From positions 1-27,053 of IMG/VR virus record IMGVR_UViG_3300027784_000031: 27,053 nucleotides of DNA; one strand, written 5' to 3'. How positions within the stretch are numbered: the first letter of the stretch is position 1; each line of letters starts with the position of its first letter. This document shows positions 1 through 22,379 of this stretch, in pieces. The DNA is from a virus. The translations under genes were made by a program, and so were the position numbers. The notes beneath the pieces were generated by a model, which did not search any database, had not been told where the DNA came from, and was given only the letters and a program-made list of their open reading frames with translations.

Positions 1-18
1 CCCGCCGTATTGTTTTAT
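1..18 (-). repeat. Intergenic hairpin H0 (cut by window edge)
   Basis: The window opens inside a copy of the intergenic hairpin described at 208-231. The loop CCGCCGT and one arm (ATTGTTTTAT) are visible and the other arm lies outside. The loop resembles that of the copy at 4038-4061. The TAA stop of the adjoining gene lies in the arm. Confidence 0.6.
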
Positions 19-188
19 ATATTATCTAATTGATTAATCAAGTCTAAAACAAAACTCATTTCTTCAGCAAACTCATCTTCTGTTTCATTTTCCTGAATAC
101 TATTTTTAGTCTTCCATAAAACTTTGCTTAACATATTAATTTCATCAATTGTTAAATACAACGAATAAGTTTTAGGCTTTATATCCAT
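15..188 (-). CDS. Small hypothetical protein (57 aa), last visible gene of the leftward operon
   Basis: I do not recognise this protein. It is acidic at its C-terminal end (run ENETEDEFAEE) and has no Cys pairs or membrane segment. I start it at MDIKPK because AAAGGAG lies 8 bases upstream; a longer reading from MKGVKN would place the start inside the ribosome site. It is separated from the upstream gene by hairpin H1, and its stop lies in hairpin H0, so it has the same cassette layout as its neighbours. Confidence 0.7.
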   Translation of the reverse strand: MDIKPKTYSLYLTIDEINMLSKVLWKTKNSIQENETEDEFAEEMSFVLDLINQLDNI

Positions 189-207
189 ATTTTTCACTCC
201 TTTCAAT

Positions 208-231
208 AAAACAATCCTTGATTATTGTTTT
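208..231 (-). repeat. Intergenic hairpin H1 (loop type A)
   Basis: Perfect 8-bp arms AAAACAAT / ATTGTTTT flank the loop CCTTGATT (plus strand). In the leftward transcript it sits between the stop of the gene at 241-633 and the ribosome site of the gene at 15-188. There is no U-tract after the stem, so it does not look like an ordinary terminator. Confidence 0.85.
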
Positions 232-240
232 ACTTTTTAT

Positions 241-633
241 CTAAACACCTATCTCAAAACTATAATGTCTCAGCTCCTGCCTCATTTTTTCTATTTCTTT
301 AAAATCCACAACCATTTTGGGATGATTAATAATATATTTTTTGCCTTCTTCCGAATTAACTTTTAGTAAATATTCCTTTTTAATTAAAAATGTTCTACCT
401 TTAGGGTATTCTTCAATTATTGTATTATTGAATCTTTTAGTATCATATATATGCCAATCTTGTTTAGCAGGTAGTATGTTATCTCCTGTCCAAATTACTC
501 TAAAAACTGGCGATAAATTAAACATACATTTTCCAGGTATAGCCATTTTAAACTGTATTCCACTTTCTGTAACTTCTAAAGAACCACTATTATCATTTAC
601 CAATACTAAATCATCTTTTTTTATGTTGCTCAT
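241..633 (-). CDS. Hypothetical phage protein (130 aa)
   Basis: Not recognised. The start ATG has GGAGGTG about 9 bases upstream. The sequence mixes predicted beta strands (MAIPGKCMFNLSPVFRVIW) with a charged C-terminal helix (KEIEKMRQELRH) and has no nuclease, kinase or zinc motif. The region MIWTGD...EEYPKGRTFLIKKEYLLKV could be a small beta domain. Hairpin H2 precedes it and H1 follows. Confidence 0.75.
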   Translation of the reverse strand: MSNIKKDDLVLVNDNSGSLEVTESGIQFKMAIPGKCMFNLSPVFRVIWTGDNILPAKQDWHIYDTKRFNNTIIEEYPKGRTFLIKKEYLLKVNSEEGKKYIINHPKMVVDFKEIEKMRQELRHYSFEIGV

Positions 634-649
634 TTTTTTTTACACCTCC

Positions 650-667
650 ACAACACTTGATTATTGT
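650..667 (-). repeat. Intergenic hairpin H2 (loop type A, G-U closed)
   Basis: Plus strand ACAAC - ACTTGATT - ATTGT. The DNA arms mismatch at one base, but in the leftward RNA this becomes a G-U pair (ACAAU with GUUGU). The retained pairing suggests selection on RNA structure. Confidence 0.65.
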
Positions 668-689
668 TTTACTTTAAAATAATTACTCA

Positions 690-878
690 TTAATGATCAA
701 ATTCATATCCTAAATTTACTTCCTCCGCTTCCACTTTTGTTGGAAAATATAAAGTTGTAATGCCTAACCCTCCTATATCCTCATACTCAACCTCCACAAC
801 CCAATTATCAATACCTGCAACCACTCTCTTTTTAGGTTTAGTTATAATATCAGTAACAATTGCTTTAATTTTATTCAT
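690..878 (-). CDS. Small conserved phage protein (62 aa)
   Basis: Unknown function. Motif VVEVEYEDIGG-GITTLYFPTKVEAEEV looks like a compact beta-beta-alpha fold; I recall similar short proteins in clostridial phages but cannot name a family. The start is supported by GGAGGTG upstream. It lies between hairpins H3 and H2. Confidence 0.7.
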   Translation of the reverse strand: MNKIKAIVTDIITKPKKRVVAGIDNWVVEVEYEDIGGLGITTLYFPTKVEAEEVNLGYEFDH

Positions 879-890
879 CTTTTCACCTCC

Positions 891-908
891 ACAATATCAC
901 TGTATTGT
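891..908 (-). repeat. Intergenic hairpin H3 (loop type B)
   Basis: Perfect arms ACAATA / TATTGT with loop TCACTG. The stop codon of the gene at 910-1140 is embedded in the flanking AATAAAACAAT context. The loop is nearly identical to that of H10 (3608-3625). Confidence 0.85.
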
Positions 909-909
909 T

Positions 910-1140
910 TTATTCTTTTTCACTTTCAATTATCGACTGAACATTAAACGGACAATCTACCTCATATAAACCTTGCTTTTCTGGTTCACCTGTGCTTTGG
1001 TTAACTTCATACAAAACACCTTTTAGTGTTAACCAATTTTTCAATATGTCAATTTCATAACAACTAACTACCATAAAACATCCAACACCATAATCTGGTA
1101 AAGGTACAATTTGTTTATATTCTGGGAATATTCTATTCAT
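910..1140 (-). CDS. Small hypothetical protein (76 aa)
   Basis: Not recognised. It contains GVGCFMVVSCYEIDILKNWLTLKGVLYEV and ends in an acidic tail (ESEKE). Tandem ATGs occur; I prefer the second (MNRIF) because AAGGTG is then correctly spaced. Its start overlaps the end of the gene at 1133-1369 by 8 bases, which suggests translational coupling. There is no hairpin at this junction, unlike most others in the operon. Confidence 0.65.
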   Translation of the reverse strand: MNRIFPEYKQIVPLPDYGVGCFMVVSCYEIDILKNWLTLKGVLYEVNQSTGEPEKQGLYEVDCPFNVQSIIESEKE

Positions 1141-1369
1141 CATTATCACCTTCACATTGTTGGATTACTTTTTCCCATTTATCTCTAAATTCGTTATACT
1201 TTTTAATAGACATTTTTTTGCCTGAGGGGATGCTTATATTATAACCATTATAGTCTATTACCCTCTTCATTTTTTTAGCAGCTTCCAGCAATTCCTGTTT
1301 TTCTTCTTTTAATCTTTCATTTTCCTTTGACAATTGTCCTATCATTTCAGCAGCTTTTTTTTCACTCAC
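1133..1369 (-). CDS. Small coiled-coil protein (78 aa)
   Basis: GTG start preceded by AGGGGGATTAGA. Residues 5-37 form a likely coiled coil rich in K and E (SKENERLKEEKQELLEAAKK). The C-terminal part has NGYNISIPSGKKMSIKKYNEF. Function unknown; small phage coiled-coil proteins are often adaptors. It overlaps the next gene by 8 bases. Confidence 0.65.
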   Translation of the reverse strand: MSEKKAAEMIGQLSKENERLKEEKQELLEAAKKMKRVIDYNGYNISIPSGKKMSIKKYNEFRDKWEKVIQQCEGDNDE

Positions 1370-1394
1370 TCTAATCCCCCTCTTTTTTATGAAT

Positions 1395-1410
1395 CAATTC
1401 TTGATTATTG
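1395..1410 (-). repeat. Intergenic hairpin H4 (degenerate, loop type A)
   Basis: CAAT - TCTTGATT - ATTG: only 4 bp of arm remain, but the loop is the same family as H1, H2 and H5. It follows the broken gene at 1418-1494. Confidence 0.55.
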
Positions 1411-1417
1411 TTTTATT

Positions 1418-1494
1418 GCATACAATCTTTAATTTCACCTTTTTATTCAAAATATCACATCATTATTCTTAATTCCTGTAACTTACTTACTCAT
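1418..1494 (-). pseudogene. Remnant of a tiny gene with early stop codons
   Basis: A good ribosome site (AAGGGGGGAAAT) precedes ATG AGT AAG TAA, so translation stops after three residues. The frame then reads VTGIKNNDVIF before a TGA, and a shifted frame reads KGEIKDCMQ up to the TAA that abuts hairpin H4. The hairpin boundary marks where the ancestral gene ended, so this looks like a decayed cassette rather than spacer. Confidence 0.4.
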
Positions 1495-1509
1495 TATTTA
1501 TTTCCCCCC

Positions 1510-1665
1510 TTAATTAAAAGTCACTGAATGACCACACTCTTGACAATTAATATTTTTTTCTGAACTAAAATCAACAGTTCCACTAATTAATATTTTATTG
1601 AGCCGGTTATTGTTTTCTAATTTAACTTCGGTACTACAATTATCACATTTTAAAGTAAAACTCAT
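1510..1665 (-). CDS. Small zinc-ribbon protein (51 aa)
   Basis: Two Cys knuckles, CDNC near the N-terminus and CQEC-GH near the C-terminus (C7, C10, C41, C44), are the only recognisable features and suggest one structural zinc. The start ATG shares a base with the upstream stop (TAATG), with AAGGGGG upstream. Function unknown; possibly nucleic-acid or protein contact. Confidence 0.7.
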   Translation of the reverse strand: MSFTLKCDNCSTEVKLENNNRLNKILISGTVDFSSEKNINCQECGHSVTFN

Positions 1666-1830
1666 TATTTATTCCCCCTTGAGTGCTTTTCTTTTGTCAA
1701 AAGCAATTCTTCCATATCATCCTTTAAATCTATATTATATTCATCGCAATATTCTTCCACCCCAGTTATTATTGTTCTATTAATTTGAATAAGTCTATTC
1801 CAATGCATCTTTAGTTAATTTTATTTTCAT
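1665..1830 (-). pseudogene. Frameshifted small gene
   Basis: ATG at 1830 (behind AAAGGAG) opens MKIKLTKDALE and stops at TAG (1795-1797). Moving one base to the next frame restores RLIQINRTIITGVEEY and continues to a TAA that overlaps the next ATG. The join LTKDALE/RLIQINR reads like a single helix, so one extra T near 1797 probably split the gene. Alternatively, the second frame is translated alone from ATG at 1808 (47 aa, MHWNRL), but that start has no good ribosome site. Confidence 0.5.
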
Positions 1831-1840
1831 TCTCCTTTCT

Positions 1841-1858
1841 ACAATACTTGATTATTGT
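1841..1858 (-). repeat. Intergenic hairpin H5 (loop type A)
   Basis: ACAAT - ACTTGATT - ATTGT. The loop matches H2 exactly. The adjoining gene's stop is TAG instead of TAA because the flank reads GAATAGAACAAT. Confidence 0.8.
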
Positions 1859-1859
1859 T

Positions 1860-2186
1860 CTATTCTTTAATAATAATCTCGTTGTAATCTATACCTTCAT
1901 GTTCATTTATTTTAATTTGATTATTTTCGAAAGCATCCATAACTTTTTCGTGACCTTTTTTAGCTTCTTCTCTAGTGGTATATCTGCTGCAATACATTTC
2001 ACCCCAGTCAATATTGTCATTTTTATCCATTGCAAAAATCATAGTTTCATACCACAGGGGTGGGCCATCACCAAATTGATGATTTATGCCTAAGTCAACT
2101 GTGGAAACAAAATACTTATCACTTTTGAAAGTAACTTTATCTTGCCTAACTATTCTGTTTTCTTCATCAAAATCTTCTCTTACCAT
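1860..2186 (-). CDS. Conserved phage protein of unknown function (108 aa)
   Basis: The segment YFVSTVDLGINHQFGDGPPL followed by WYETMIFA resembles a short protein I recall from Firmicute phages; no activity is known to me. It is acidic at the N-terminus (EDFDEEN) and mixed alpha/beta, with no signal or membrane segment. The start ATG follows AGGAGGGGTTAAAG. It lies between hairpins H6 and H5. Confidence 0.75.
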   Translation of the reverse strand: MVREDFDEENRIVRQDKVTFKSDKYFVSTVDLGINHQFGDGPPLWYETMIFAMDKNDNIDWGEMYCSRYTTREEAKKGHEKVMDAFENNQIKINEHEGIDYNEIIIKE

Positions 2187-2213
2187 CTTTAACCCCTCCT
2201 TTTATTAATGCAA

Positions 2214-2229
2214 CAATAACACTCTATTG
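2214..2229 (-). repeat. Intergenic hairpin H6 (unique loop)
   Basis: CAATA - ACACTC - TATTG, 5-bp arms. The loop does not fall in the three recurring loop types. Confidence 0.7.
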
Positions 2230-2231
2230 CT

Positions 2232-2822
2232 TTATACGGTTATTGAAGTTGGACTTAACTCTTTGGTCCTATCCCCAATTTTTAATTTAACCTTATTCTC
2301 ACTTTTACCTATAACTTCTGCTATTTCACCTTTATCCTTACCTCTTTTAATTTTAACCTCGGTCCCATTATTAATATCTCTCATTTTGCAATACTTTTTA
2401 CACATTCTTCTAATTTTACTCCATCCTGCACCAGTTAATCCCAACTCAACCCATTTTGGATAAGACATATGCTCAATGATTTCTTGATAAGGGCCGCTTT
2501 CTAATATCGATTTCGTTACATTCCCTTCTTGAAATTGCCTCCAATATCCAGTCATTACAAAAGTAGATATTAAAGCGTTCCAAAATTGCTGTTTATTACA
2601 CGGTCCTTTATAAACAAAATTATAATAAGTTTCTCTAATTAAGCCCCCAAAATGACTAGCTGTAAGTATTATTTCTTCCATTTCTTCTTTATTAGGCAAT
2701 CCTTCCCCATATATAGCTTTTTGAATATAAGATAAATAAGTGTGCAGCATATCTGGTATTGATGGTTCTATTCTACTAAGAATATGATTTTCCATTACTT
2801 CTGTTTGGTTTAATTCATTCAT
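2232..2822 (-). CDS. Hypothetical protein with C-terminal KOW-like domain (196 aa)
   Basis: The first ~145 residues are helical, with aromatic-rich segments (FVMTGYWRQFQEG) and a small Cys cluster (RMCKKYCKM). From about residue 152 the pattern NGTEVKIKRGKDKGEIAEVI resembles a KOW/SH3-like small barrel, as found in ribosomal L24/L26 and transcription factors, which contacts RNA or proteins. The start is supported by AAGGGGGG. The function is open; an RNA-linked role is inference only. Confidence 0.7.
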   Translation of the reverse strand: MNELNQTEVMENHILSRIEPSIPDMLHTYLSYIQKAIYGEGLPNKEEMEEIILTASHFGGLIRETYYNFVYKGPCNKQQFWNALISTFVMTGYWRQFQEGNVTKSILESGPYQEIIEHMSYPKWVELGLTGAGWSKIRRMCKKYCKMRDINNGTEVKIKRGKDKGEIAEVIGKSENKVKLKIGDRTKELSPTSITV

Positions 2823-2843
2823 ACTTAACCCCCCTTATTTATA

Positions 2844-2863
2844 AAACAATGCCCCTATTTTGT
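2844..2863 (-). repeat. Intergenic hairpin H7 (imperfect)
   Basis: AAACAAT - GCCCCT - ATTTTGT, a bulged version of the common stem with a GC-rich unique loop. It holds the TAG that would end the broken gene at 2855-2917. Confidence 0.5.
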
Positions 2864-2917
2864 ATCTTCCTCAAATATTTTTTATTTTTCAGTTGTAATA
2901 TTAATTTTCCAACTCAT
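2855..2917 (-). pseudogene. Tiny gene interrupted by an in-frame TAA
   Basis: AAGGAGGC precedes ATG, then MSWKINITTEK, then TAA (2882-2884). The same frame continues KIFEEDTK to a TAG that lies in hairpin H7, exactly where intact genes of this operon end. Either an 11-residue peptide is made or this is a nonsense-mutated 20-codon cassette. Confidence 0.35.
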
Positions 2918-2937
2918 TTTTAGCCTCCTTTTTAATG

Positions 2938-2962
2938 AAACAATAATACGCCGATATTGTTT
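2938..2962 (-). repeat. Intergenic hairpin H8 (loop type C)
   Basis: Perfect 8-bp arms AAACAATA / TATTGTTT with loop ATACGCCGA. The loop shares CGCCGA with H11. Confidence 0.85.
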
Positions 2963-3099
2963 TATAATTTATGGTTATTCTCTGCAACTGGCTCCATTTC
3001 TTTACCGCATTCAGGACATTCAGGTGTTTTGTTTTTGGTTGCTAGTTTATAATCATTATTATTACATTTTTTATTGTAGCAGTATGCTTTACAGTACAT
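2962..3099 (-). CDS. Small zinc-ribbon protein (45 aa)
   Basis: MYCKAYCYNKKC at the start and PECPECGKEME near the end supply at least four Cys for one zinc site. The stop TAA overlaps hairpin H8. Ribosome site GGTGGAG. Function unknown; it is one of about eight micro zinc-ribbon proteins in the window. Confidence 0.65.
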   Translation of the reverse strand: MYCKAYCYNKKCNNNDYKLATKNKTPECPECGKEMEPVAENNHKL

Positions 3100-3111
3100 T
3101 ATTCATCTCCA

Positions 3112-3135
3112 CCTTTCTTGATTATTGTTTTATTT
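3112..3135 (-). repeat. Half hairpin H9 (loop type A, one arm lost)
   Basis: CTTGATTATTGTTTTATT is identical to the loop plus one arm of H1, but the partner arm is replaced by the ribosome site of the next gene. It is probably a decayed copy. Confidence 0.55.
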
Positions 3136-3139
3136 AATA

Positions 3140-3310
3140 TTATTTTTTTAATATGGCTTTTATTTTTCCATCTTCGTTTACTAATTTAATATCAAATTTA
3201 CTTGTGTCCATAACTTTATGTTCTACAGCGTAATAATATATAGCATCTTTTATCACTTCTTCACCTAACCAAACTTCCTCTTTACCTTTTTTAAATTTTC
3301 TTATAGTCAT
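3140..3310 (-). CDS. Small hypothetical protein (56 aa)
   Basis: Basic N-terminus (TIRKFKKGKEEVW), a middle helix and an EDGKIKAILKK tail. No family recognised. The start is supported by AGAAGGTG. It follows a start-less ORF (3315-3425) without a hairpin between. Confidence 0.6.
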   Translation of the reverse strand: MTIRKFKKGKEEVWLGEEVIKDAIYYYAVEHKVMDTSKFDIKLVNEDGKIKAILKK

Positions 3311-3314
3311 TTTT

Positions 3315-3425
3315 TCACCTTCTTTCTTTTTCTAGTTCTTTTTCATGCGGACAATCTTCAGGAACTACCAATATTTCAGATTCTTTTGCATATCTTTCTA
3401 AGTGGACCTCATAACCGCATATTTC
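3315..3425 (-). pseudogene. Start-less ORF remnant with Cys/His motif
   Basis: The reading frame directly after the TAA at 3426-3428 continues for about 36 codons (EICGYEVHLERYAKESEILV, then a CPHEKELEKER tail) to a TGA just upstream of the next ribosome site. It has no start of its own and no hairpin separates it from the gene before it, although nearly all other junctions have one. A deletion removing a hairpin plus the gene start would explain this; stop readthrough is the alternative. Confidence 0.4.
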
Positions 3426-3587
3426 TTAATTTAATATTAGTTGAAGAACCTTGTTTTTTGGAAACTTCAAAAGCAATTCACTTGCATTATTTTTAAGTAT
3501 GTTATCCTCAATTTCATAATAAGTTTCACACATAAATATCAACAAATTCTCTAATGATTGAATATATTCTTTATTATTTTCACTCAT
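3426..3587 (-). CDS. Small hypothetical protein (53 aa)
   Basis: Helical and acidic at first (ENNKEYIQSLENLLIF), more hydrophobic later (NKVLQLILN). The start ATG has GAGGAGGTGG upstream. The frame stays open beyond its TAA (see 3315-3425), so its present C-terminus may be a fusion scar. Confidence 0.55.
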   Translation of the reverse strand: MSENNKEYIQSLENLLIFMCETYYEIEDNILKNNASELLLKFPKNKVLQLILN

Positions 3588-3607
3588 CAAACCACCTCCT
3601 CATTACC

Positions 3608-3625
3608 ACAATACCACTGTATTGT
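3608..3625 (-). repeat. Intergenic hairpin H10 (loop type B)
   Basis: Perfect arms ACAATA / TATTGT, loop CCACTG, one base different from H3. Confidence 0.85.
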
Positions 3626-3626
3626 T

Positions 3627-4022
3627 TTATTCTTTGACTTCATTTAAAAATTTTATGAAACTATCTTTCGCAGGCTTCCAGTGTTCATTCTGTTTAGCTC
3701 TGACTTCAAGATAAAAATTATCATTATCAAAAGCAATTAGACCTATTCCTCTTCGTTTTAAACCCTTAATAAAATCATCAACAAACCCCATAGTAGGTAC
3801 AGGCATACAGATATAAGATTTATCAGCTCCTATTTGATGTGTTCTTGCTTGTTCTAATGCTTTTCTCCAATTATGCAATTTATGTTCTACGCTTCTATAT
3901 TTCCCATTTTTGATTAATACTGCATCTATACACCTTGACATAAAAGGTACTTCTCTAACTACTTCATATCCTAAATTTTCTATATGTTTTTTAAATTTTG
4001 TTGCTAATTCATTTTCTGTCAC
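3627..4022 (-). CDS. PD-(D/E)XK-like nuclease candidate (131 aa)
   Basis: Residues 23-48 fit the core of the PD-(D/E)XK fold: R23, R30, D33 in IDAVLI, then a turn and VEHK (E46, K48), followed by W52 and the helix ALEQAR with Q58. This is the usual order D...ExK...Q. Metal-dependent DNA cleavage is inferred from the motif only. GTG start behind AAGGAGGGAG. It lies directly downstream of the methyltransferase gene, separated by hairpin H11, so a modification/cleavage pair or a replication/recombination nuclease are both possible. Confidence 0.6.
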   Translation of the reverse strand: MTENELATKFKKHIENLGYEVVREVPFMSRCIDAVLIKNGKYRSVEHKLHNWRKALEQARTHQIGADKSYICMPVPTMGFVDDFIKGLKRRGIGLIAFDNDNFYLEVRAKQNEHWKPAKDSFIKFLNEVKE

Positions 4023-4037
4023 AACAACTCCCTCCTT

Positions 4038-4061
4038 AAAACAATCCGCCGATATTGTTTT
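4038..4061 (-). repeat. Intergenic hairpin H11 (loop type C)
   Basis: Perfect 8-bp arms AAAACAAT / ATTGTTTT, loop CCGCCGAT. It is the first copy in transcription order; no copies were found right of here. Confidence 0.85.
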
Positions 4062-4067
4062 ATTCTT

Positions 4068-4733
4068 TTATTCCTGTTTTTCACATAAACTGACTATATG
4101 TCGACATAATTCTTGTGGTATTCTTGACCTTTGTATATTATTTTTTAACCCTTGAGTGCCTGTTGTACTTCCTCTTGGTGCTGCTGCATGACAAGGGTCA
4201 CCATTCTTGCATATAGGTTTAAAATTAGGATATGGGTGATTTGTCCATATATCAGTAGGTTTCATACGTTCGTCACCATACTGACAATAAGTGACTGTGT
4301 ATCTACCAACCCCATTCATATCCTTCATCAATTCCGATTTTCTCATCCCTCCTCTTGGATTTTCTATAAAATAGTATTTAGGGTTTAATTTCTCTATTAA
4401 TTTCAACATTTTAATTAAATATTCATCATGTAACTCAGCTTTTTCACTTTTAGCTGTTAAAAATCCGCTCTCTAATTTTTTTCTATGATGTGAAATTGCT
4501 GCTATTGAATAAGTGGTGCAAGGAGGGCTAGCCCATACAATATCAGGCTTATCGCCTAATCTTTTTATTACTTCTTCGCTAGTCACATTTAAAATATCAG
4601 TTGTCCATTGATTTAATTTAAAAGGTCTTTTTGTAAATTCATCATTATACTCAACACATAAAGTTTTATGCCCTTTTTTTCTAAATTCATTGCTGATGCT
4701 TTGTGTCCCCGAAAACAATTCTAAAACTTTCAT
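4068..4733 (-). CDS. DNA (cytosine-5) methyltransferase-like protein (221 aa)
   Basis: Residues 3-17 (LELFSGTQSISNEF) are the SAM-binding motif I of cytosine-5 methyltransferases. WASPPCTTYS carries the PC motif with catalytic Cys72, and IENPRGGMRK (E124) corresponds to the ENV/ENP motif. At 221 residues it is much shorter than cellular Dcm enzymes and has little room for a target recognition domain, as in several phage versions; the target is unknown. It would methylate phage or host DNA, perhaps to escape restriction. ATG follows GGGGAGGGG, which is encoded within an 11-codon leader. It stands early in the operon driven by the promoter at 5029-5057. Confidence 0.8.
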   Translation of the reverse strand: MKVLELFSGTQSISNEFRKKGHKTLCVEYNDEFTKRPFKLNQWTTDILNVTSEEVIKRLGDKPDIVWASPPCTTYSIAAISHHRKKLESGFLTAKSEKAELHDEYLIKMLKLIEKLNPKYYFIENPRGGMRKSELMKDMNGVGRYTVTYCQYGDERMKPTDIWTNHPYPNFKPICKNGDPCHAAAPRGSTTGTQGLKNNIQRSRIPQELCRHIVSLCEKQE

Positions 4734-4735
4734 AA

Positions 4736-4771
4736 TTAACCCCTCCCCGTTTCTATTTCTGTTAATTTCAT
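4736..4771 (-). CDS. Eleven-residue leader peptide upstream of the methyltransferase
   Basis: Opens by ATGA overlap with the stop of the membrane protein gene and reads MKLTEIETGRG. Its last codons (GGG AGG GGT) form the ribosome site of the methyltransferase, so it probably couples translation across the junction rather than making a working protein. Confidence 0.35.
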   Translation of the reverse strand: MKLTEIETGRG

Positions 4772-4866
4772 TTTAACTTCCTTATAAATGTATGTACTAA
4801 ATACCAGATAAAAACTATAGTTGCCACTATACTACCACCACCTAATAATGTTTGCCAGGTATCCAT
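4768..4866 (-). CDS. Small membrane protein (32 aa)
   Basis: MDTWQTLLGGG is followed by a single hydrophobic helix (SIVATIVFIWYLVHTF) and a basic tail (IRKLK), which predicts one membrane pass. GAGGGGG precedes the ATG. Function unknown; it is too small for a canonical holin. Confidence 0.65.
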   Translation of the reverse strand: MDTWQTLLGGGSIVATIVFIWYLVHTFIRKLK

Positions 4867-5004
4867 TTAATCCCCCTCAATTTGATTACTTCTTTTTATA
4901 GAGTGTTTTAACTTTCCACTACAAGCACTACATTCATAATTATTGTGTTCAGCAACCTTTTTTATATACACTTTTTGACATTTATTACATAAATATTTTT
5001 TAAT
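4867..5004 (-). CDS. Zinc-ribbon protein with apparent ATT start (45 aa)
   Basis: The first gene after the consensus promoter at 5029-5057. CNKC and CSAC knuckles (residues 6-9 and 25-28) suggest one zinc. GGAGGTGA lies 5 to 8 bases before ATT AAA AAA TAT TTA, which would read (M)KKYLCNKCQKVY, a normal-looking N-terminus. No ATG exists in frame. GTG and TTG codons in frame upstream sit inside the ribosome site. I infer ATT initiation, a rare start known from genes such as infC. Confidence 0.6.
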   Translation of the reverse strand: MKKYLCNKCQKVYIKKVAEHNNYECSACSGKLKHSIKRSNQIEGD

Positions 5005-5028
5005 AATTATCACCTCCAACTTAAATAT

Positions 5029-5057
5029 ATTATACCATAACTGATAGATATTGTCAA
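5029..5057 (-). promoter_or_regulatory. Leftward sigma-A promoter P4, perfect consensus
   Basis: TTGACA (5052-5057) and TATAAT (5029-5034), read on the minus strand, are spaced by exactly 17 bases. The -35 box overlaps the 3' end of the gene at 5054-5293. It should be a strong promoter for the hairpin-punctuated operon to the left. Confidence 0.85.
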
Positions 5058-5293
5058 GTATTATTTGCCATTTCTTTTATTTTATCTAAACGGAATTCTA
5101 AATGATAATATATAAAATCTTCTAATTTATGTCTGCTGGGGAACTTTTTAGAGAAAAACTTTTCTCTATTTTCTAAAATTATTTCTGCCTGCCAATTATT
5201 ACCCCTTAAATGCGGATTATTAATTAAAGAAATGCTAGATACTTTATCAATGTCAATATAGGTGTCTTTGTTAATACGATATAAGTTATTCAT
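5054..5293 (-). CDS. Small hypothetical protein (79 aa)
   Basis: Not recognised. Segments TYIDIDKVSSISLI and WQAEIILENREKFF suggest a beta-rich N-terminal half with a C-terminal helix (HKLEDFIYYHLEFRL). I start it at MNNLYR because GGGAGGGGG lies correctly upstream; the longer reading from MQQQLN has no ribosome site and runs through the end of the preceding small gene. Confidence 0.7.
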   Translation of the reverse strand: MNNLYRINKDTYIDIDKVSSISLINNPHLRGNNWQAEIILENREKFFSKKFPSRHKLEDFIYYHLEFRLDKIKEMANNT

Positions 5294-5345
5294 TTGATAC
5301 CCCCTCCCTTCATACCATATAGATATGTCTGCTGTGCCGGGCCCC

Positions 5346-5414
5346 TTAATATTTAGCTGTTGCTGCAAACAGAAGTAACAGGACTATTGCTATTATATGT
5401 GTTAATAGTTCCAT
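5346..5414 (-). CDS. Tiny membrane peptide (22 aa)
   Basis: AGGAGGTAAAT precedes ATG. The product is almost entirely one hydrophobic helix (LLTHIIAIVLLLLFAATA). Many phages carry such peptides; the role is unknown. It follows the helicase gene. Confidence 0.55.
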   Translation of the reverse strand: MELLTHIIAIVLLLLFAATAKY

Positions 5415-5423
5415 ATTTACCTC

Positions 5424-6686
5424 CTAAAATAATTCACTTGTACTCTTATCCACCTCAACATTACCATCCTGGTCTTTGGTTAAATAAGGTTTAAGTAAAC
5501 CTATATCCATATCCCATAGTAATAATATTTCACCTGTTTGACCATAGTTATTCTTTTTAACTACTATTTTAGTCATTTTATCTACTTTTTTGAAAGTTAA
5601 AATTCTTCGGGAATTGTGTGCAATGCCATCAGAACCAAACACTTCCTTTATTTTAGGCACTTCTATATCATTAATACTTTCTATATCATCTCCATCTTCT
5701 GCATTTCTATTAGCTTGATGTGGTGCAATAATAGGCAACTTATACTTTTGGGACATCTGGTTTAAATCTTCTGATATATTTTCATATTTAGTATGCTTTC
5801 TTCTAGCCCCTCTTTCATCTTTCATAAGAGTTATTTGGTCAATACCTACAATATCGGGGCTATATTTTTCTAGTAAACTCTCTAATTTAGTGGCAGTAAG
5901 TTTACCATTAATATCATTAGGAGTTATAACTGTAAAAGGGGTGTCTTTGTTCTTTAATTGTTCTATATATTCCTTATAGTCTTTTTCTACTTCTTCGTCC
6001 CCTCTGCTTAACTTAGTATTTGAAAAGTTTTTGTAAAGAGTATCAAACCGATAACCAATTACACTAGAAGGTAACTCACCATTAAACATCAAAACCTTTT
6101 TACCTTGTTTCCAGGCTTGAACTAAGAAAAATAACAATAACCAAGTCTTACCTTGTGATGTCCTAGCAATTATAGTTACTAAATCTTCTTCCTGCCAACC
6201 ATTAGTAATTCTATCCAGTTCCTCTATTCCTGTACCTATCCCGGTTTTCATCCCCTTCTGTCTTTGTTTAAACTCTTCCAATCTTTTATTAGCGTCCTGC
6301 ACTAAATCCTCACCCTCATAATATGTACCTATTTCGTTAAATTCCTCTATCTTTTGTTTTAGAAACGTATAGGCTTCCCAGCTATCTTTTTCTGCTAATT
6401 TAGTTAATTTTTTTATTGATTTACACATTTTACGAAACAGGTATTGTTCTTTTAGCTCTTCTACCAAATATCTATTACTTTCCTCTATCTGAATTAACTC
6501 AAAATCTTCAAATTTATCAAGAAAAGTAGCTTCATCAGGAACATTACCATATTTATCATAGTGGTCTAATATATATTTATACTCGTTTTTATAACTCTTA
6601 AAATGATTAAGGTCTACATCATTTTGTCGGGCTAAAGTTAATGCCTGTTCTTCTAGAACTTTATTAATGAACTGTAATTCAATCAT
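5424..6686 (-). CDS. DnaB-like replicative DNA helicase (420 aa)
   Basis: The C-terminal RecA-type motor has Walker A ARTSQGKT (174-181), the GELP segment with the likely catalytic Glu204, Walker B DIVGIDQITL (D283) and an APHQANRNAED motif (H3-like sensor). GTGIEELDRITNGW just before Walker A is the usual DnaB/phage helicase lead-in. The first 140 residues are a helical N-terminal domain. It would unwind DNA at the phage fork as a ring. Its start overlaps the helicase loader by 8 bases, the common loader-helicase pairing. No primase or polymerase gene lies in the window. Confidence 0.88.
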   Translation of the reverse strand: MIELQFINKVLEEQALTLARQNDVDLNHFKSYKNEYKYILDHYDKYGNVPDEATFLDKFEDFELIQIEESNRYLVEELKEQYLFRKMCKSIKKLTKLAEKDSWEAYTFLKQKIEEFNEIGTYYEGEDLVQDANKRLEEFKQRQKGMKTGIGTGIEELDRITNGWQEEDLVTIIARTSQGKTWLLLFFLVQAWKQGKKVLMFNGELPSSVIGYRFDTLYKNFSNTKLSRGDEEVEKDYKEYIEQLKNKDTPFTVITPNDINGKLTATKLESLLEKYSPDIVGIDQITLMKDERGARRKHTKYENISEDLNQMSQKYKLPIIAPHQANRNAEDGDDIESINDIEVPKIKEVFGSDGIAHNSRRILTFKKVDKMTKIVVKKNNYGQTGEILLLWDMDIGLLKPYLTKDQDGNVEVDKSTSELF

Positions 6687-9740: not shown

Positions 9741-9769
9741 ATGGTAGCACAACTATAATTAAATGTCAA
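9741..9769 (-). promoter_or_regulatory. Leftward promoter P3
   Basis: TTGACA (9764-9769), 17-base spacer, TACCAT (9741-9746). The block 9748-9778 (A-run, TTGACA and spacer) is a copy of 14215-14245 in promoter P2 with one mismatch in 31 bases. Confidence 0.65.
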
Positions 9770-9776
9770 GTTTTTT

Positions 9777-10193
9777 TTAGGTATTTTTTTCATTTTGCCA
9801 AATTTTAACCAATTTCAAGGCGTCTTTGAAGTTATTTACCTTTTCTCTTAACATCCCTTTAGGTTTATCTCCAGCAGGGGAATAATTGATTATATAGTTC
9901 AGAAAGTAGTGGTCTTTGTTAGTTATTAAGATGATGTCTTTGAAGGTCATATGGGCTTCCTGGAGTTCCATTGAAGTCCCAATATAAGGTGTATTTAACA
10001 TTAATTCAGCTACAATTAAATCACAGGTCTTTACACTTTCCATATCTGTTTCATAAATGTAATCTACACTATAGGTATCATTGAGGTCTTTGTCTTTAAT
10101 AGGGTCAATAACTTCAAACTTATAAAATAATTTTCTCCATTGTCTGCAGTATATTTCATATGTCTTATTAATGGCTCCAGCTAAATATATCAT
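9777..10193 (-). CDS. Nucleoside 2-deoxyribosyltransferase-like protein (138 aa)
   Basis: IYLAGAI at the N-terminus, VIDPIKDKD (29-35), CDLIVAEL and above all YIGTSMELQEA (70-80, Glu76 as the expected nucleophile) match the nucleoside 2-deoxyribosyltransferase fold. Members swap bases on deoxyribose or hydrolyse deoxynucleoside monophosphates. In a phage it would reshape the nucleotide pool during DNA synthesis. Related folds include TIR-like NAD-cleaving proteins, so the substrate is not certain. The start overlaps the previous stop by one base (TAATG). Confidence 0.75.
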   Translation of the reverse strand: MIYLAGAINKTYEIYCRQWRKLFYKFEVIDPIKDKDLNDTYSVDYIYETDMESVKTCDLIVAELMLNTPYIGTSMELQEAHMTFKDIILITNKDHYFLNYIINYSPAGDKPKGMLREKVNNFKDALKLVKIWQNEKNT

Positions 10194-14207: not shown

Positions 14208-14236
14208 AGTATATCATAACTATAATTAAATGTCAA
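14208..14236 (-). promoter_or_regulatory. Leftward promoter P2
   Basis: TTGACA (14231-14236), 17-base spacer, TATACT (14208-14213). An A-run precedes it. It shares a 31-base block (14215-14245) with promoter P3. Confidence 0.8.
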
Positions 14237-14258
14237 GTTTTTTTTGTTTTTTTTCTTG

Positions 14259-14385: not shown

Positions 14386-14420
14386 TAAAAAAAGCAGAAT
14401 CTGATTAATCAGATTCTGCT
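14386..14420 (-). terminator. Strong Rho-independent terminator, leftward
   Basis: A perfect 28-base palindrome (14393-14420; arm AGCAGAATCTGA, loop TTAA), followed on the leftward transcript by seven T. It closes the three-gene unit that starts at promoter P1. Confidence 0.9.
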
Positions 14421-15328: not shown

Positions 15329-15982
15329 GTTTATAGCAAAAAAAAACAACAAAAAAAGAATTTATTTTATTAACAATAAAAACCAATAATTCCAGGTAAA
15401 CCCATAAATGTCAATAAATAACAATTAAATAAATAAACAGTAATTAAACCAATAATATACAAAAAAACAAAAAAACGGCAACAATGGTAAAGTATATAAG
15501 TTATACTATTTAATGTAAAATACATATTATATGTAATATATACTTAATCCCTGTTTATAACCATAAATATAATTAATATAGTTATTAATACTAATAAAGT
15601 AATAGTATAAATAATACTAAGGTTAATAATATTATATGTCTATTCACATTATTGATATATCAAGCTCAAAAAAGTAAATAGAAAAATAAGTACAGCAGCA
15701 GTAACTTTCTATCGTGCCTGTCATTATAGTTATGTAACCGATTACATAAATATATGCGTAAAACAGTTCTTTTGCGAAACTTTATGCCTATTTATACCTG
15801 TAAACTTTACCATATATGTAAAATACCCCCCGCCCTGGAAATATATGGTAATAGGTCGTGCTTACCCCTTCGACAAAACGTCATATTTTTAAACCCGGGG
15901 TCCCTCTATGTCAGTAATCATAGGCCACTCTAGTATTAAGAACTATTTTCATTTAAAAATGTAAATATATAGTTAACTTTTG
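15329..15982. promoter_or_regulatory. Divergent control region with palindromes
   Basis: No gene on either strand. Perfect dyads: AGTATA/TATACT (15491-15507), TACATA/TATGTA (15521-15535), TTATTA/TAATAA (15582-15597), AGTAT/ATACT (15604-15618) and TATGTAA-CCGA-TTACATA (15731-15748). There is also an 11-bp inverted repeat, TTACCATATAT (15807-15817) with ATATATGGTAA (15841-15851), enclosing a C-rich segment. They fit binding sites for a lysis/lysogeny or early/late switch protein, or an origin. Confidence 0.5.
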
Positions 15983-15988
15983 TATAAT
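15960..15988 (+). promoter_or_regulatory. Candidate rightward late promoter
   Basis: TATAAT (15983-15988) with a 17-base spacer to a weak -35 (TGTAAA, 15960-15965). It is the only clear -10 before the rightward genes. The poor -35 would suit an activator-dependent late promoter. Confidence 0.45.
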
Positions 15989-16037
15989 AGTAGTGAGGAA
16001 GGGGTGAGTACAATACCGCTTATTAGGGGGTATCAAC

Positions 16038-17823: not shown

Positions 17824-17898
17824 GCAGGAGTAAGGTAATGGCTATCCGGCTGGACTCCAAATCCAGTTATGCAGGTTCAAGTCCTGTCTCCTGCACCA
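17824..17898 (+). tRNA. tRNA-Trp (anticodon CCA)
   Basis: Acceptor GCAGGAG pairs with CTCCTGC, the anticodon stem CTGGA/TCCAG holds the loop CTCCAAA (anticodon CCA), and the T arm GCAGG-TTCAAGT-CCTGT is intact. Discriminator A and encoded CCA follow. The D stem is weak (only two firm G-C pairs in AGGT...TCCG), so activity is likely but unproven. GATAGA/TCTATC (17912-17930) downstream may be a processing hairpin. It lies in the cargo segment between the terminase genes. Confidence 0.85.
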
Positions 17899-18346: not shown

Positions 18347-20767
18347 TTGAAAAAATTAATTATACTAGTCTTTGTATTAATTTTAATTCTTGTAGGTTGT
18401 GAACCCTTTTCTCGGTCTATAGAAGAGAATGATACAGGTACTTTAGAGTTGAGTATTGAGACAGGAGATATGTTTCAAAGTATAGGTTCTCAGTCTGTTA
18501 TAGATAATAGATTTAAAAATTACAAGTTATCTATTGTTGTACAGCAAGGCGACGTAGTGTATGAAGATGTATTAGAATTGGACAATATAAGCAATACAGT
18601 AGATGTTAGATTTAACGAATTACCTGAAGGGGAGTGGGATATAGGAATAACTTTAATAGCAGATTTTGTTGGTGAAGATGGAAGTGAAGTGATTAAATCT
18701 GATGTAGAAATTGCTTCTGGGGAAGGTGTAGCTGAAGTTGTTAAGGAAGAAACTACTGAAAAGAGTATTGAGATAATACCTCATTCAGGTGATATAGCAA
18801 TTACTATTAATGAATTGCCTAAGGATGAGGATGTAGAAGTTACAATTGAAGATGAGTCAAAGATATTTACAGAAAATGGTCAGACAGCGGTTTGGAAAGA
18901 GTTGACTTCTAATAAACTAACAACTGCAATTTTTCAATGGAAAGGTAATGAAGTTCTTCGAGAGCAGGAGTTTATAGTGGTTCCTGGTATTCAAAAGTTG
19001 ATTGAAGTTGAACATTTTAATTTAGTAGATGGTGATTTGGTATTAACAGTTTTGTGGGATTTCCCTCCTCTAACTCCTGAGAATATTAGCACTGAACAGG
19101 TTGAAGAAGGATTTAATATTTCTTGGGAAAATGAAGGTTATTCTAATATTATCCTAAAGAGGGAAATTAATAGAGATGATTATTGGCAACGAGTAGGTGA
19201 GGTAATAGAGACTGAATCTGAGTTTTATTACGACGCAGAGTGGGGTATTGAATATCAGTTTGCAATAGTAGCAAAGAATAGTGGTGGTTTTGTTAGTGAT
19301 TTTGGGAAAACTGATATAGTAGAATTAATAGAAGATGAAACTGTGAATATAACAGGCTCTTTATCAATTCAACATAATTTTCCCGAGTCAAAAGTAGAAA
19401 CTTCTCAAAAATCTATAAATCAATTTGATAATAGAATGGGAACTATGGATGAATTAATTGTAAGATATCATTATGGAGAAAAAAGTAATGCTATATCATC
19501 TTTAGAAGATGCTGGATTTAATATTATTGATGAATTAGATGAACTTAATGCAATTCTAGTAGAAGGAGAGGAAATACAAAGTGCGTCTAAGCTAGAGGAG
19601 GTAAGGCATGTAGAACAGAATAAAAGAGTATCGACCTTTGATTATATAATCCCAGATGATCCAAAATATGAGGATCAGTGGGTTTCTGGAGTAATGAGAT
19701 TACCTCAAACTTGGAGAGATAATCAGGGAGGAGATACTAGAGTAGCTGTTTTAGATACAGGAGTTGATTATAATCACATTGAATTAGAAAAGTTTGTAGA
19801 CCATGATGCTAGTATTAATCTTACTGATGATGAAGGAGATTATATGGATGAACATGGGCATGGAACACATGTAGCTGGAAGTGTCGGAGCTGAAGCAAAT
19901 AATCAAGCGGGTATTGCAGGGGTTCTTTGGGATTGGGATTTAATGGCTGTACAAGTATTAACTAAAAGCGGCAGTGGAACTTATTATGGTATTGCAAAAG
20001 GAATATTATATGCATCTAATCTTTTAGATGAACATGAAGTTGTTCCCGCAGATATTATTAATATGTCTCTTGGAGGTTCTGGGTATTCTGAAACTTTACA
20101 TGATGCTGTTAAAGAGGTAAATCATGCGGGGGTATTAATGATAGCTGCTGCAGGGAATACTTATGATGACAATGTTAGTTACCCTGCTAAATTTCCAGAA
20201 GTTGTAGCTGTCAGTGCTTTGGAATATGTAGAAGGAGAACCTCCTACTTTAGCATCTTTCTCTAGTTATGGAGATGAGATTGATTTAGCTGCTCCTGGTA
20301 GGGATGTTTTAAGTACCTATCCTGGAGATTATGTGAGTCGGCTCAGTGGAACATCAATGGCATCTCCTCAAGTAGCTGGATTAGCAGGATTACTAATTGC
20401 AAACGGTGTGCCTCCCAGAGATGTGTTAGAAACAATGCAAAGAACAGCTATAGATTTAGGTGACGAATATTATTATGGTGCTGGAATGATTAATACCTAT
20501 TGGGCAACTCAAGATGTAAATGAAATTAAAATTATTGTTGGAGAGAGATTAGATAGAAATTTTGAAATAATAGAAGAAATAGAAGTTCCAATAGATGCTG
20601 ACAAGTTTGAAATAGAAGCCCCTACAGGAGAGTATGAGGTTATGGCTTGGATAGATGTTCGTGGTAGCGGTCATCTGGAAAATGGAGATTATTTTAAAAG
20701 TTCTGGAGAAATAAGTGTTCAAGATAACATTAATATAAATATAGAGTTAGAAGAATATTATCAATAA
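18347..20767 (+). CDS. Secreted subtilisin-like (S8) lipoprotein protease (806 aa)
   Basis: TTG start behind ATAGGAGG. The signal peptide MKKLIILVFVLILILVGC ends in a lipobox, so lipid anchoring at Cys18 is predicted. Residues 30-235 are beta-rich modules, and 243-325 look like a fibronectin-III-type domain. Residues 365-430 resemble an I9 propeptide inhibitor. The S8 core then shows Asp470 (VAVLDTG), His505 (HGHGTHVAG), the oxyanion Asn604 (AAAGN) and Ser670 (SGTSMASP), all intact. A beta domain closes the protein. It would act on the host surface. A cellular-type exoprotease between the two terminase genes is foreign to head assembly, so it is probably cargo (a moron). It is not a capsid maturation protease, which lacks signal peptides. 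Confidence 0.88.
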   Translation: MKKLIILVFVLILILVGCEPFSRSIEENDTGTLELSIETGDMFQSIGSQSVIDNRFKNYKLSIVVQQGDVVYEDVLELDNISNTVDVRFNELPEGEWDIGITLIADFVGEDGSEVIKSDVEIASGEGVAEVVKEETTEKSIEIIPHSGDIAITINELPKDEDVEVTIEDESKIFTENGQTAVWKELTSNKLTTAIFQWKGNEVLREQEFIVVPGIQKLIEVEHFNLVDGDLVLTVLWDFPPLTPENISTEQVEEGFNISWENEGYSNIILKREINRDDYWQRVGEVIETESEFYYDAEWGIEYQFAIVAKNSGGFVSDFGKTDIVELIEDETVNITGSLSIQHNFPESKVETSQKSINQFDNRMGTMDELIVRYHYGEKSNAISSLEDAGFNIIDELDELNAILVEGEEIQSASKLEEVRHVEQNKRVSTFDYIIPDDPKYEDQWVSGVMRLPQTWRDNQGGDTRVAVLDTGVDYNHIELEKFVDHDASINLTDDEGDYMDEHGHGTHVAGSVGAEANNQAGIAGVLWDWDLMAVQVLTKSGSGTYYGIAKGILYASNLLDEHEVVPADIINMSLGGSGYSETLHDAVKEVNHAGVLMIAAAGNTYDDNVSYPAKFPEVVAVSALEYVEGEPPTLASFSSYGDEIDLAAPGRDVLSTYPGDYVSRLSGTSMASPQVAGLAGLLIANGVPPRDVLETMQRTAIDLGDEYYYGAGMINTYWATQDVNEIKIIVGERLDRNFEIIEEIEVPIDADKFEIEAPTGEYEVMAWIDVRGSGHLENGDYFKSSGEISVQDNININIELEEYYQ

Positions 20768-20783
20768 AAAAGGAGAGTGATTA

Positions 20784-20831
20784 ATGAAATTTAAGCTAAC
20801 CTATAAGCCTATAACTAAAATAAGAAGGTGA
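20784..20831 (+). CDS. Possible 15-residue basic peptide
   Basis: AAAAAGGAGAGTGATTA precedes ATG and MKFKLTYKPITKIRR. The ribosome site is good, but the product is tiny and unrecognised. Its end supplies AAGGTGA for the next gene. Confidence 0.3.
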   Translation: MKFKLTYKPITKIRR

Positions 20832-20839
20832 GTGTTAAC

Positions 20840-20980
20840 ATGAAGTGTAAAGACTGCAAGACTAACAACAATGTAGGTAGAGTATATTGTTTAAACTGTG
20901 GTAAACATCTGTATGGGGATGATAGATATGGAAAATCTTACAAACGAAGAACAGAAAATGTTTTTCGATTCTTTGGCTGA
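20840..20980 (+). CDS. Small zinc-ribbon protein overlapping the large terminase start (46 aa)
   Basis: CKDC (3-6) and CLNC (17-20) give a compact zinc ribbon at the N-terminus, followed by a basic tail (RYGKSYKRRTENVFRF). AAGGTGAG precedes the ATG. Its last 53 bases overlap the terminase gene in another frame. HNH or terminase-linked zinc proteins can sit here, but no catalytic motif is seen. Confidence 0.55.
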   Translation: MKCKDCKTNNNVGRVYCLNCGKHLYGDDRYGKSYKRRTENVFRFFG

Positions 20981-22367
20981 AGTTGATTATGAATTTTATG
21001 CTGAATATGTTAATCCTGAATATGTACATGGGCAGCATACTAAATATGTTTGTAATTTACTGTCTGACATTGTAGAGAACGATAGGGGTGGCAAGTATAT
21101 AATTACTATGCCGCCTCAACATTCTAAATCCTATACCATTACTGAAACTTTTCCTTCTTTTTATTTAGGAAACTTTCCCACAAGAAGTGTAATTACAGTT
21201 GGCTATAGTGGGAATTTTGCTGAAAAGTTTGGGCGTAAGAATCTAAACAAGATAAGAGAGTATGGCTCTGATGTCTTTGGAGTGCAAACAGGGGAGAAAG
21301 AAACCTATAAGGACTGGACATTAGAACACGGGGGTAGAATGTTATCTAGTGGTATAGGGGGTCAAATTACTGGTGAGAGAGCAGATTGTTTGTTGATAGA
21401 TGACCCGGTGAAAAATAGACAAGATGCTAATAACAAAAGGTATAGAGATAGATTATGGGACGAATGGGAAAATACTTTAAGTACTCGATTAGCAGAAAAT
21501 TCATTAGTTATTTTAATTCAGACCTTATGGCATGAAGATGGTTTAGCAGGCAGACTTATGGAAAGAGAAGCAGAAAAATGGAATGTTCTTAAATTTCCAG
21601 CTTTAAGCCCAGGTAAAGAGCAAGATATTCTTGGGAGGGAGAAGGATGAACCTCTTTGGCCTTTTCAATATAGTAAAGAATATTTAGAAGAAAGACGTAG
21701 AGATTTAGATTCTAAAACTTGGAACAGTTTATATATGTGTGCACCAAATATTGAACAGGGCAATCAATTTAAATCAATCTATTTTAGATACTTTAGAGAA
21801 AATGATGATAAGAGTGCATTTATACTAGAAGATAATGAAAAAAGGGTTATTTTGAAAAGCAGATGTGTTCCTTTTCAGACTGTTGATAGTTCCTTTAAGA
21901 AAAAGAACAGGCATGACCCAACTGTTATTAGTACTTGGTACTTAACCCCAAATAATGATATTTTACTTTACAATGTTTATAAAGATAGAATATCGGTGCC
22001 GGATTTATTCCCCACTTTAGAAAGTTTAATGGATAGATACAAACCTGTTAAGGTTTTTGTAGAAGATAAGGCCAGTGGTACTGGGATAATTCAAACAGCA
22101 AAAAGAAAAGGTCGACCAGTAATAGCGGTACCTTCACAAAATGATAAAGTTACAAAAAGTTTTGAAATAAGTAGTTTTTATGAGAACAGGGCGGTATATC
22201 ATAAACAGGACACAGAGTGGGTAGCAGATTATGAGGATGAATTAACTAAATTTCCCGAAACTGCCCATGATGACCAGGTTGATACAGCTAGTATTGCAGG
22301 TATGGTTGTTTCCCGAAACTTCTTGAGAGCAGGAGAATCTAGTGGTGGATTTGTAACTTCAATATAA
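20928..22367 (+). CDS. terL: Terminase large subunit (479 aa)
   Basis: The motor that pumps DNA into the procapsid. N-terminal ATPase: MPPQHSKS (61-68) as the variant Walker A, and DCLLIDDP as Walker B. C-terminal RNase H-type nuclease: TVDSSFKKKNRHDPTVI, VFVEDKASGTGII and HDDQVDTAS give the acidic triad. Length is normal for the family. I start it at MENLTN with GGGG nine bases upstream; three earlier in-frame starts (from 20898) overlap the zinc-ribbon gene. Confidence 0.93.
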   Translation: MENLTNEEQKMFFDSLAEVDYEFYAEYVNPEYVHGQHTKYVCNLLSDIVENDRGGKYIITMPPQHSKSYTITETFPSFYLGNFPTRSVITVGYSGNFAEKFGRKNLNKIREYGSDVFGVQTGEKETYKDWTLEHGGRMLSSGIGGQITGERADCLLIDDPVKNRQDANNKRYRDRLWDEWENTLSTRLAENSLVILIQTLWHEDGLAGRLMEREAEKWNVLKFPALSPGKEQDILGREKDEPLWPFQYSKEYLEERRRDLDSKTWNSLYMCAPNIEQGNQFKSIYFRYFRENDDKSAFILEDNEKRVILKSRCVPFQTVDSSFKKKNRHDPTVISTWYLTPNNDILLYNVYKDRISVPDLFPTLESLMDRYKPVKVFVEDKASGTGIIQTAKRKGRPVIAVPSQNDKVTKSFEISSFYENRAVYHKQDTEWVADYEDELTKFPETAHDDQVDTASIAGMVVSRNFLRAGESSGGFVTSI

Positions 22368-22379
22368 GGAGGTGAGCTA

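What the first reader, a model, noticed from the sequence alone, without database searches (positions are those of the whole stretch)
1..4061. Tiny gene cassettes punctuated by a repeated hairpin with interchangeable loops
At about 11 junctions in 4.1 kb, plus one at the edge, the leftward transcript has: stop codon inside AATAAAACAAT, a short loop, the complementary arm, then the ribosome site. Stems are conserved (AAAACAAT/ATTGTTTT or shorter), while loops fall in recurring types: A (CCTTGATT, ACTTGATT, TCTTGATT), B (TCACTG, CCACTG), C (CCGCCGAT, ACGCCGA), plus two unique ones. H2 keeps pairing by a G-U change. Loop types reappear at distant junctions, as if cassettes were shuffled. None has a U-tract. 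This recalls the start-associated inverted repeats (SAS/ESAS) of cluster K mycobacteriophages and, more loosely, integron cassettes. Possible roles are RNase processing sites, binding sites for a phage RNA- or DNA-binding protein, or recombination sites for gene gain.
Basis: partly seen in the sequence, partly recalled or inferred. Interest (0 to 1): 0.85.

Follow-up and report, generated by a model that had tools for sequence, protein, structure and literature searches.

The report
Repeated junction signals between phage genes
A bacterial virus carries a run of tiny, mostly unknown genes, inserted at a place where its relatives have none, and separates nearly all of them with the same short mirror-image DNA signal whose middle comes in a few interchangeable versions; it may mark where such genes are gained, lost or switched, but this has not been tested.

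Summary
The repeat is real. On the minus strand of 1-4062 there are 10 complete sites plus one cut by the contig edge: TAAAACAAT-N8-ATTGT(TTTA). All lie outside coding sequence, between tiny genes, in one orientation. The spacer is 8 nt at most sites although its sequence falls into discrete types. Three more sites lie at the start of a second IMG/VR contig (G001) that looks like the other half of the same phage. No other phage searched has the array. In relatives dnaB and the primase gene are adjacent (58, 3 and 3 bp apart); here at least 8.9 kb of small genes lies between them, and the sites are confined to it.

As an RNA hairpin the element is weak. No pair shows a compensatory change, the right arm decays (absent at 3132), and the stop codon is inside the arm at only 6 of 11 sites. 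There is no terminator, no promoter in the element and no tyrosine or serine recombinase.

Best reading: an inverted-repeat gene-junction module, like the ESAS and Cluster O repeats of mycobacteriophages, that also serves as a homology patch where accessory genes are swapped, probably by the phage's Erf/Rad52 annealase. Recombination is inferred, not shown. A DNA operator or RNA signal remain serious rivals.

The parts
4037..4062 (-). junction element H10, spacer type C (ATCGGCGG), full right arm ATTGTTTTA
   Evidence: 45.3 bits
3604..3629 (-). junction element H9, spacer type B (ACAGTGGT)
   Evidence: 46.7 bits
3107..3132 (-). junction element H8, spacer type A (AATCAAGA), right arm lost
   Evidence: 34.9 bits
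2936..2964 (-). junction element H7, spacer type C (ATCGGCGT) with about 3 extra nt before the right arm
   Evidence: 33.6 bits
2209..2234 (-). junction element H6, spacer type B variant (AGAGTGTT), left arm TAAAGCAAT
   Evidence: 35.2 bits
1837..1862 (-). junction element H5, spacer type A, left arm TAGAACAAT (stop TAG)
   Evidence: 45.6 bits
1390..1415 (-). junction element H4, spacer type A, right arm imperfect (ATTGATTCA)
   Evidence: 36.2 bits
887..912 (-). junction element H3, spacer type B (ACAGTGAT); 30 bp 97% identical to H9 with its flanks
   Evidence: 42.8 bits
646..671 (-). junction element H2, spacer type A, right arm GTTGT (one-sided G-U change)
   Evidence: 36.9 bits
207..232 (-). 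junction element H1, spacer type A, full 9-bp arms
   Evidence: -7.9 kcal/mol, z -3.8; 44.5 bits
1..17 (-). junction element H0, cut by the contig edge exactly after its spacer ACGGCGGG; the same spacer occurs in G001 at 299
1770..1779 (-). left-arm half-site (TAGAACAATA) without spacer type or right arm, inside a small ORF; doubtful
   Evidence: 19.5 bits
2842..2851 (-). right-arm-like half-site (CATTGTTTTA) after a truncated ORF remnant; doubtful
5029..5057 (-). perfect sigma-70-type promoter match (TTGACA-17-TATAAT with TG) that could drive the leftward array
4068..4733 (-). C5 cytosine DNA methyltransferase gene, upstream neighbour of the first element
15..4022 (-). 13 small genes (45-196 aa; two pairs overlap without an element) plus two truncated gene remnants at about 2917-2882 and 1495
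5424..6686 (-). DnaB-type replicative helicase gene; in relatives it is followed directly by the primase gene

Best explanation
The elements are a repeated gene-junction module in an accessory-gene array of a tailed phage whose nearest cultured relatives by DnaB and terminase infect Bacillota. Shown: an inverted repeat (TAAAACAAT, 8-nt spacer of a few discrete types, ATTGT...) sits between a gene's end and the next ribosome-binding site, always in the direction of transcription, in a block of small genes inserted between dnaB and the primase gene. Inferred: every copy carries the same 10-nt left arm, and copies of one spacer type share about 16-30 bp, so two copies can recombine by homology. 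The phage's Erf/Rad52-type annealase and RecA-like protein would be the likely agents. A crossover inside the element leaves a stop on one side and a ribosome site on the other, so genes can be lost, gained or re-paired without damaging neighbours. The arms are probably kept by a second role, as a protein-recognition or expression signal, that I could not identify.
For: Four relatives (G002 and L272-L274) keep DnaC-DnaB-primase together, with the DnaB and primase matches 58, 3, 3 and 3 bp apart; here at least 8.9 kb of small genes lies at that point, and the elements are confined to it. Window and G001 look like one genome: no shared genes, complementary colinear gene order, tetranucleotide correlation 0.84 (higher than between the window's own halves, 0.73), and a shared 39-bp promoter-like sequence. 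Spacer type is strongly clustered (84% identity within types, 29% between) but is not associated with the left flank (p 0.19) or right flank (p 0.92). Similar right flanks occur with different spacer types: only 0.4% (H4/H7) and 1% (H6/H7) of background pairs score as high. Truncated ORF remnants lie beside elements. Erf/Rad52 and RecA-like genes are present. In Cluster O phages, recombination between comparable repeats explains gene gain or loss (PMC4351075).
Against: No two versions of the array were available to show an exchange directly. Homology alone does not explain the inverted arms or the fixed 8-nt spacing. The decoupling of flank and spacer would also arise if flanks drifted freely while the left arm and spacer stayed under selection. 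The flank similarity is only modestly significant after correcting for six pairs. That window and G001 are one phage is inferred; the gap between them is unsequenced.
Confidence: 0.42

Rival explanations
1. The elements are DNA binding sites for a dimeric phage or host protein, acting as operators or stoperator-like roadblocks that silence or meter the accessory operon.
For: Fixed spacing between inverted half-sites whatever the spacer sequence; one orientation; a single strong promoter ahead of the array. SPbeta's repeated element SPBRE proved to be the site of the repressor MrpR (PMC10516654).
Against: Sites are not at promoters; the right half-site decays or is missing; the spacer falls into discrete types, which a plain operator does not need; no candidate binding protein was identified.
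Confidence: 0.25
2. The elements act in the mRNA: a small hairpin between stop codon and ribosome site that insulates translation of neighbouring genes, or marks processing or stability.
For: Position between stop and Shine-Dalgarno in one orientation; several copies fold better than shuffles (H1 z -3.8, H3 z -3.1).
Against: Weak A-U stems; H4 and H8 do not form the hairpin and several others are no better than shuffles. No pair with changes on both sides, and pairing equals the shuffled expectation.
Confidence: 0.22
3. The elements are recombination sites of a tyrosine recombinase, lox-like (inverted arms around an 8-bp asymmetric spacer), and only sites with the same spacer type recombine.
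For: 9-11 bp inverted arms and an 8-bp spacer in the best copies (H1, H10); discrete spacer types; same orientation; accessory genes between sites.
Against: No tyrosine or serine recombinase by Pfam profile in window, G001 or G002, although the genome is incomplete; most right arms are degenerate.
Confidence: 0.07
4. The elements are a passive dispersed repeat (MITE- or REP-like) that spread among intergenic regions.
For: A look-alike 22-bp palindrome recurs in the Fuchsiella alkaliacetigena genome, often as pairs about 400-600 bp apart.
Against: The phage copies are single, never paired as element ends, all in one orientation at gene junctions, and confined to one array; the Fuchsiella match came from scanning a huge collection with an AT-rich pattern.
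Confidence: 0.04

Closest known systems
Extended start-associated sequences (ESAS) of cluster K mycobacteriophages (PMC3203893, PMC11373665)
   Same: Imperfect inverted repeats in short intergenic regions of non-structural genes; left arm closer to consensus than right; mostly one orientation; repeat specific to the phage group
   Different: ESAS arms are 17 bp with a 4-13 bp variable spacer, lie just upstream of a 13-bp SAS, and contain putative SigA-like promoters; here arms are 5-9 bp, the spacer is 8 nt in discrete types, and there is no SAS or promoter
17-bp inverted repeats of Cluster O mycobacteriophages (PMC4351075)
   Same: Short inverted repeat in many copies, denser in one operon; recombination between copies inferred to have added or removed genes
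   Different: 7-bp invariant arms with a 3-bp spacer, no meaningful orientation, about a third inside genes, spread through the genome; here one orientation, no copy inside a gene except a doubtful half-site, one array only
SPBRE of phage SPbeta, bound by MrpR (PMC10516654)
   Same: Repeated intergenic element in a Bacillota phage
   Different: 15-bp repressor site controlling promoters such as that of aimR; here no promoter at the sites and no binding protein known
Stoperators of cluster A mycobacteriophages (from general knowledge and PMC4351075)
   Same: Many copies in short intergenic regions, oriented with transcription
   Different: 13-bp asymmetric sites for the immunity repressor; here an inverted repeat with typed spacers
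T4-type early stem-loop cassettes (PeSL), recalled from memory, paper not in the library
   Same: Small intergenic modules proposed to mediate gene shuffling
   Different: As I recall they combine an early promoter with a stem-loop; neither a promoter nor a stable stem-loop is present here

Membership tests
ESAS/SAS of cluster K phages | 13-bp SAS (GGGATAGGAGCCC) overlapping the ribosome site | tested here: not met
   No such sequence at the junctions listed
ESAS/SAS of cluster K phages | 17-bp imperfect inverted repeat with variable spacer | tested here: not met
   Arms 5-9 bp, spacer 8 nt
ESAS/SAS of cluster K phages | SigA-like promoter inside the element | tested here: not met
   promoter-like matches in 1-6000 are fewer than in shuffles, and the only strong one is at 5057-5029, outside the elements
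Cluster O type repeats | Invariant arms, 3-bp spacer, no orientation bias, about one third inside genes | tested here: not met
Integron cassette array | Tyrosine recombinase (IntI) gene | tested here: not met
   no PF00589 match in the available 54.8 kb; genome incomplete
lox-like site-specific recombination | Two inverted arms around a fixed asymmetric spacer | tested here: met
   for most copies; right arms often degenerate
lox-like site-specific recombination | Cognate recombinase | tested here: inconclusive
   negative, but the genome has gaps
Intrinsic terminator | GC-rich stem followed by a U-tract | tested here: not met
   0 terminator-like sites
Conserved RNA hairpin | Compensatory base changes | tested here: not met
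   0 pairs with changes on both sides; limited power because the left arm hardly varies
Rfam RNA family | Match at gathering score | tested here: not met
   only a tRNA in the window
SPBRE/stoperator-like operator | Binding by a repressor | not testable with these tools
   Needs a binding assay

The most novel reading that the evidence does not exclude
A phage-borne cassette platform: accessory genes are exchanged at short inverted-repeat junction sites whose 8-nt spacer acts as a compatibility code, so that only sites of one spacer type recombine, using either an unseen recombinase in the missing part of the genome or the phage annealase.
Probability: 0.08. Interest if true: 0.88.

Novelty: new variant of a known kind. 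Interest (0 to 1): 0.52.

Why it matters
How phages add and drop their many small accessory genes without breaking neighbours is an old question, and the repeats reported at such junctions (SAS/ESAS, Cluster O) still lack a proven function. This case offers a dense, compact array with constant arms, constant spacing and typed spacers at a defined insertion point between two core genes, so crossover, operator and RNA models make different and testable predictions.

Tried and rejected
Fuchsiella alkaliacetigena genome hits looked like the same element but are often paired 400-600 bp apart and look like ends of a MITE-like repeat; other genomes of its class are at control level. Viral-contig hits to the single patterns, other than G001, are isolated chance matches, most without hairpin or array; L293 from the same sample as G001 is an unrelated coding match. 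Cultured-phage searches with two elements gave nothing significant. Homologue searches with a 196-aa, a 131-aa and a 62-aa array protein found none. Relatives G002, L070-L072 and L272-L274 were scanned for junction repeats of their own; none was found. A structure model of the 131-aa nuclease-like protein had pLDDT 52 and was not used. A search for other contigs sharing the window's edge found none.

Full report
What was checked. The window is an IMG/VR virus record of 27,053 bases. Its minus strand from 5,424 leftwards carries small genes. A pattern search, a positional list and a covariance model agree on 10 complete elements and one cut by the contig edge, all on the minus strand between 1 and 4,062. 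No other place in 79 kb of window, contig G001 and relative G002 scores above 18.6 bits except a half-site at 1779-1770 (19.5 bits), while the complete sites score 32-47 bits. All 11 lie wholly outside coding sequence although only a fifth of the region is non-coding.

Anatomy. The consensus is TAAAACAAT-N8-ATTGT(TTTA). The left arm plus a following A is nearly invariant. The spacer between CAAT and ATTG is exactly 8 nt at 9 left-arm sites and a tenth has GTTG there; 20,000 shuffles never gave more than 4 at one offset. The spacers fall into types: A AATCAAG (6 copies), B ACAGTG/AGAGTG (3), C ATCGGCG/ACGGCGG (4), D ATCAGGC (1), counted over window and G001. The right arm is weaker: full in H1 and H10, five bases in several, broken in H4, absent in H8. 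The stop codon is inside the left arm at 6 of 11 window sites. The Shine-Dalgarno sequence follows directly or within about 20 nt.

RNA or DNA. Folding energies run from 0 to -8 kcal/mol; H1, H3, H5 and H10 beat most shuffles, while H4, H7, H8, G1a and G1c do not. On the alignment no pair has changes on both sides, and the fraction paired equals that of shuffles. The left arm barely varies, so this test has little power, but the broken right arms show that a perfect stem is not required. There is no terminator and no promoter in the elements; a perfect sigma-70-type promoter lies ahead of the array at 5057-5029.

The second contig. Pattern searches of IMG/VR found one other contig with several elements, 3300027784_000026 (G001, 27,760 bases), with elements at 83, 299 and 1067. 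Element 299 has the same spacer, ACGGCGGG, as the site cut by the window edge. Window and G001 share no homologous genes by translated search, have a tetranucleotide correlation of 0.84 and share a 39-bp promoter-like sequence at 95% identity. Relatives G002 and L272-L274 carry, in one line, DnaC, DnaB and primase, and the longer ones also sigma factor, PolI, clamp and RecB-like genes; window supplies DnaC-DnaB and G001 supplies primase onwards in the same order. I infer that the two contigs are parts of one phage, or of two very close ones. By DnaB and terminase the nearest cultured relatives infect Bacillota (Streptococcus phage Dp-1, Staphylococcus, Bacillus and Faecalibacterium phages), at 35-38% identity; the host itself is unknown.

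An insertion point. In G002 the DnaB and primase matches are 58 bp apart; in L272, L273 and L274 they are 3 bp apart. Here at least 5.4 kb follows DnaB and 3.5 kb precedes the primase gene before the contigs end. The elements are confined to the inner part of this insertion, and G002 has none. The array proteins are mostly without relatives: few and mostly weak PHROG matches, and no homologue by three searches.

Signs of exchange. If each spacer type were one lineage copied whole, sites of one type should share flanks. They do not: left-flank p 0.19, right-flank p 0.92, against 84% versus 29% identity for the spacers themselves. Some right flanks are alike across types beyond the arm (H4/H7 and H6/H7), though this is modest after correction. 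Short ORF remnants with a ribosome site lie beside elements at about 2917-2882 and 1495. The phage encodes an Erf/Rad52-type annealing protein and a RecA-like protein. None of this is a direct observation of recombination; free drift of flanks around a selected core could give the same decoupling.

What it works like. ESAS of cluster K mycobacteriophages are the closest in anatomy and Cluster O repeats in inferred evolution (PMC3203893, PMC4351075). Both fail membership tests: arm length, spacer, SAS core, promoter, orientation. ESAS now appear to hold promoters (PMC11373665), and SPbeta's repeated element is a repressor site (PMC10516654), so an operator reading must stay open. Integron membership is not supported, and a lox-like reading has the right geometry but no recombinase in the available sequence.

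Verdict. A real, compact and unusual family of gene-junction elements, a new variant of a known kind. Its role as crossover patch is my leading inference at 0.42; operator and RNA roles together are about as likely.

Noticed in passing
window 18347-20767 +: 806-aa subtilase (Peptidase_S8, 2.7e-48) with a lipoprotein-like N-terminus, sitting just before the terminase gene; unusual cargo for a phage late region.
   Followed up: partly
L081 518-3610 + (G001 19518-22610): Ribonucleotide reductase gene interrupted by an intein with a LAGLIDADG domain.
   Followed up: partly
window 17824-17898 +: tRNA-Trp (cca) gene.
   Followed up: no
G002 (L069) 1194 and 3366; G002 16803: Palindrome AACTAGTT repeated just after TTGACA-like hexamers of promoter-like sequences in the relative; looks like an operator.
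   Followed up: no
window 15972-16010 + and G001 5015-5053 +: 39-bp promoter-like sequence shared at 95% identity between the two contigs.
   Followed up: partly
window 9751-9778 and 14218-14245: Identical 28-bp promoter-like sequence (CTTGACATTTAATTATAGTT) upstream of two leftward gene groups.
   Followed up: no
G005, Fuchsiella alkaliacetigena: A 22-bp palindrome close to AAACAATATYGKTMTATTGTTT recurs (22 forward and 28 reverse matches with up to 2 mismatches, 0 in controls), often in pairs 400-600 bp apart: a MITE-like repeat.
   Followed up: partly
window 14393-14420: 28-bp perfect palindrome in the leftward early region.
   Followed up: no
window 3587-3320 and 1827-1665: Two small genes that look frame-broken (reading continues in another frame): decayed genes or assembly errors.
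   Followed up: no
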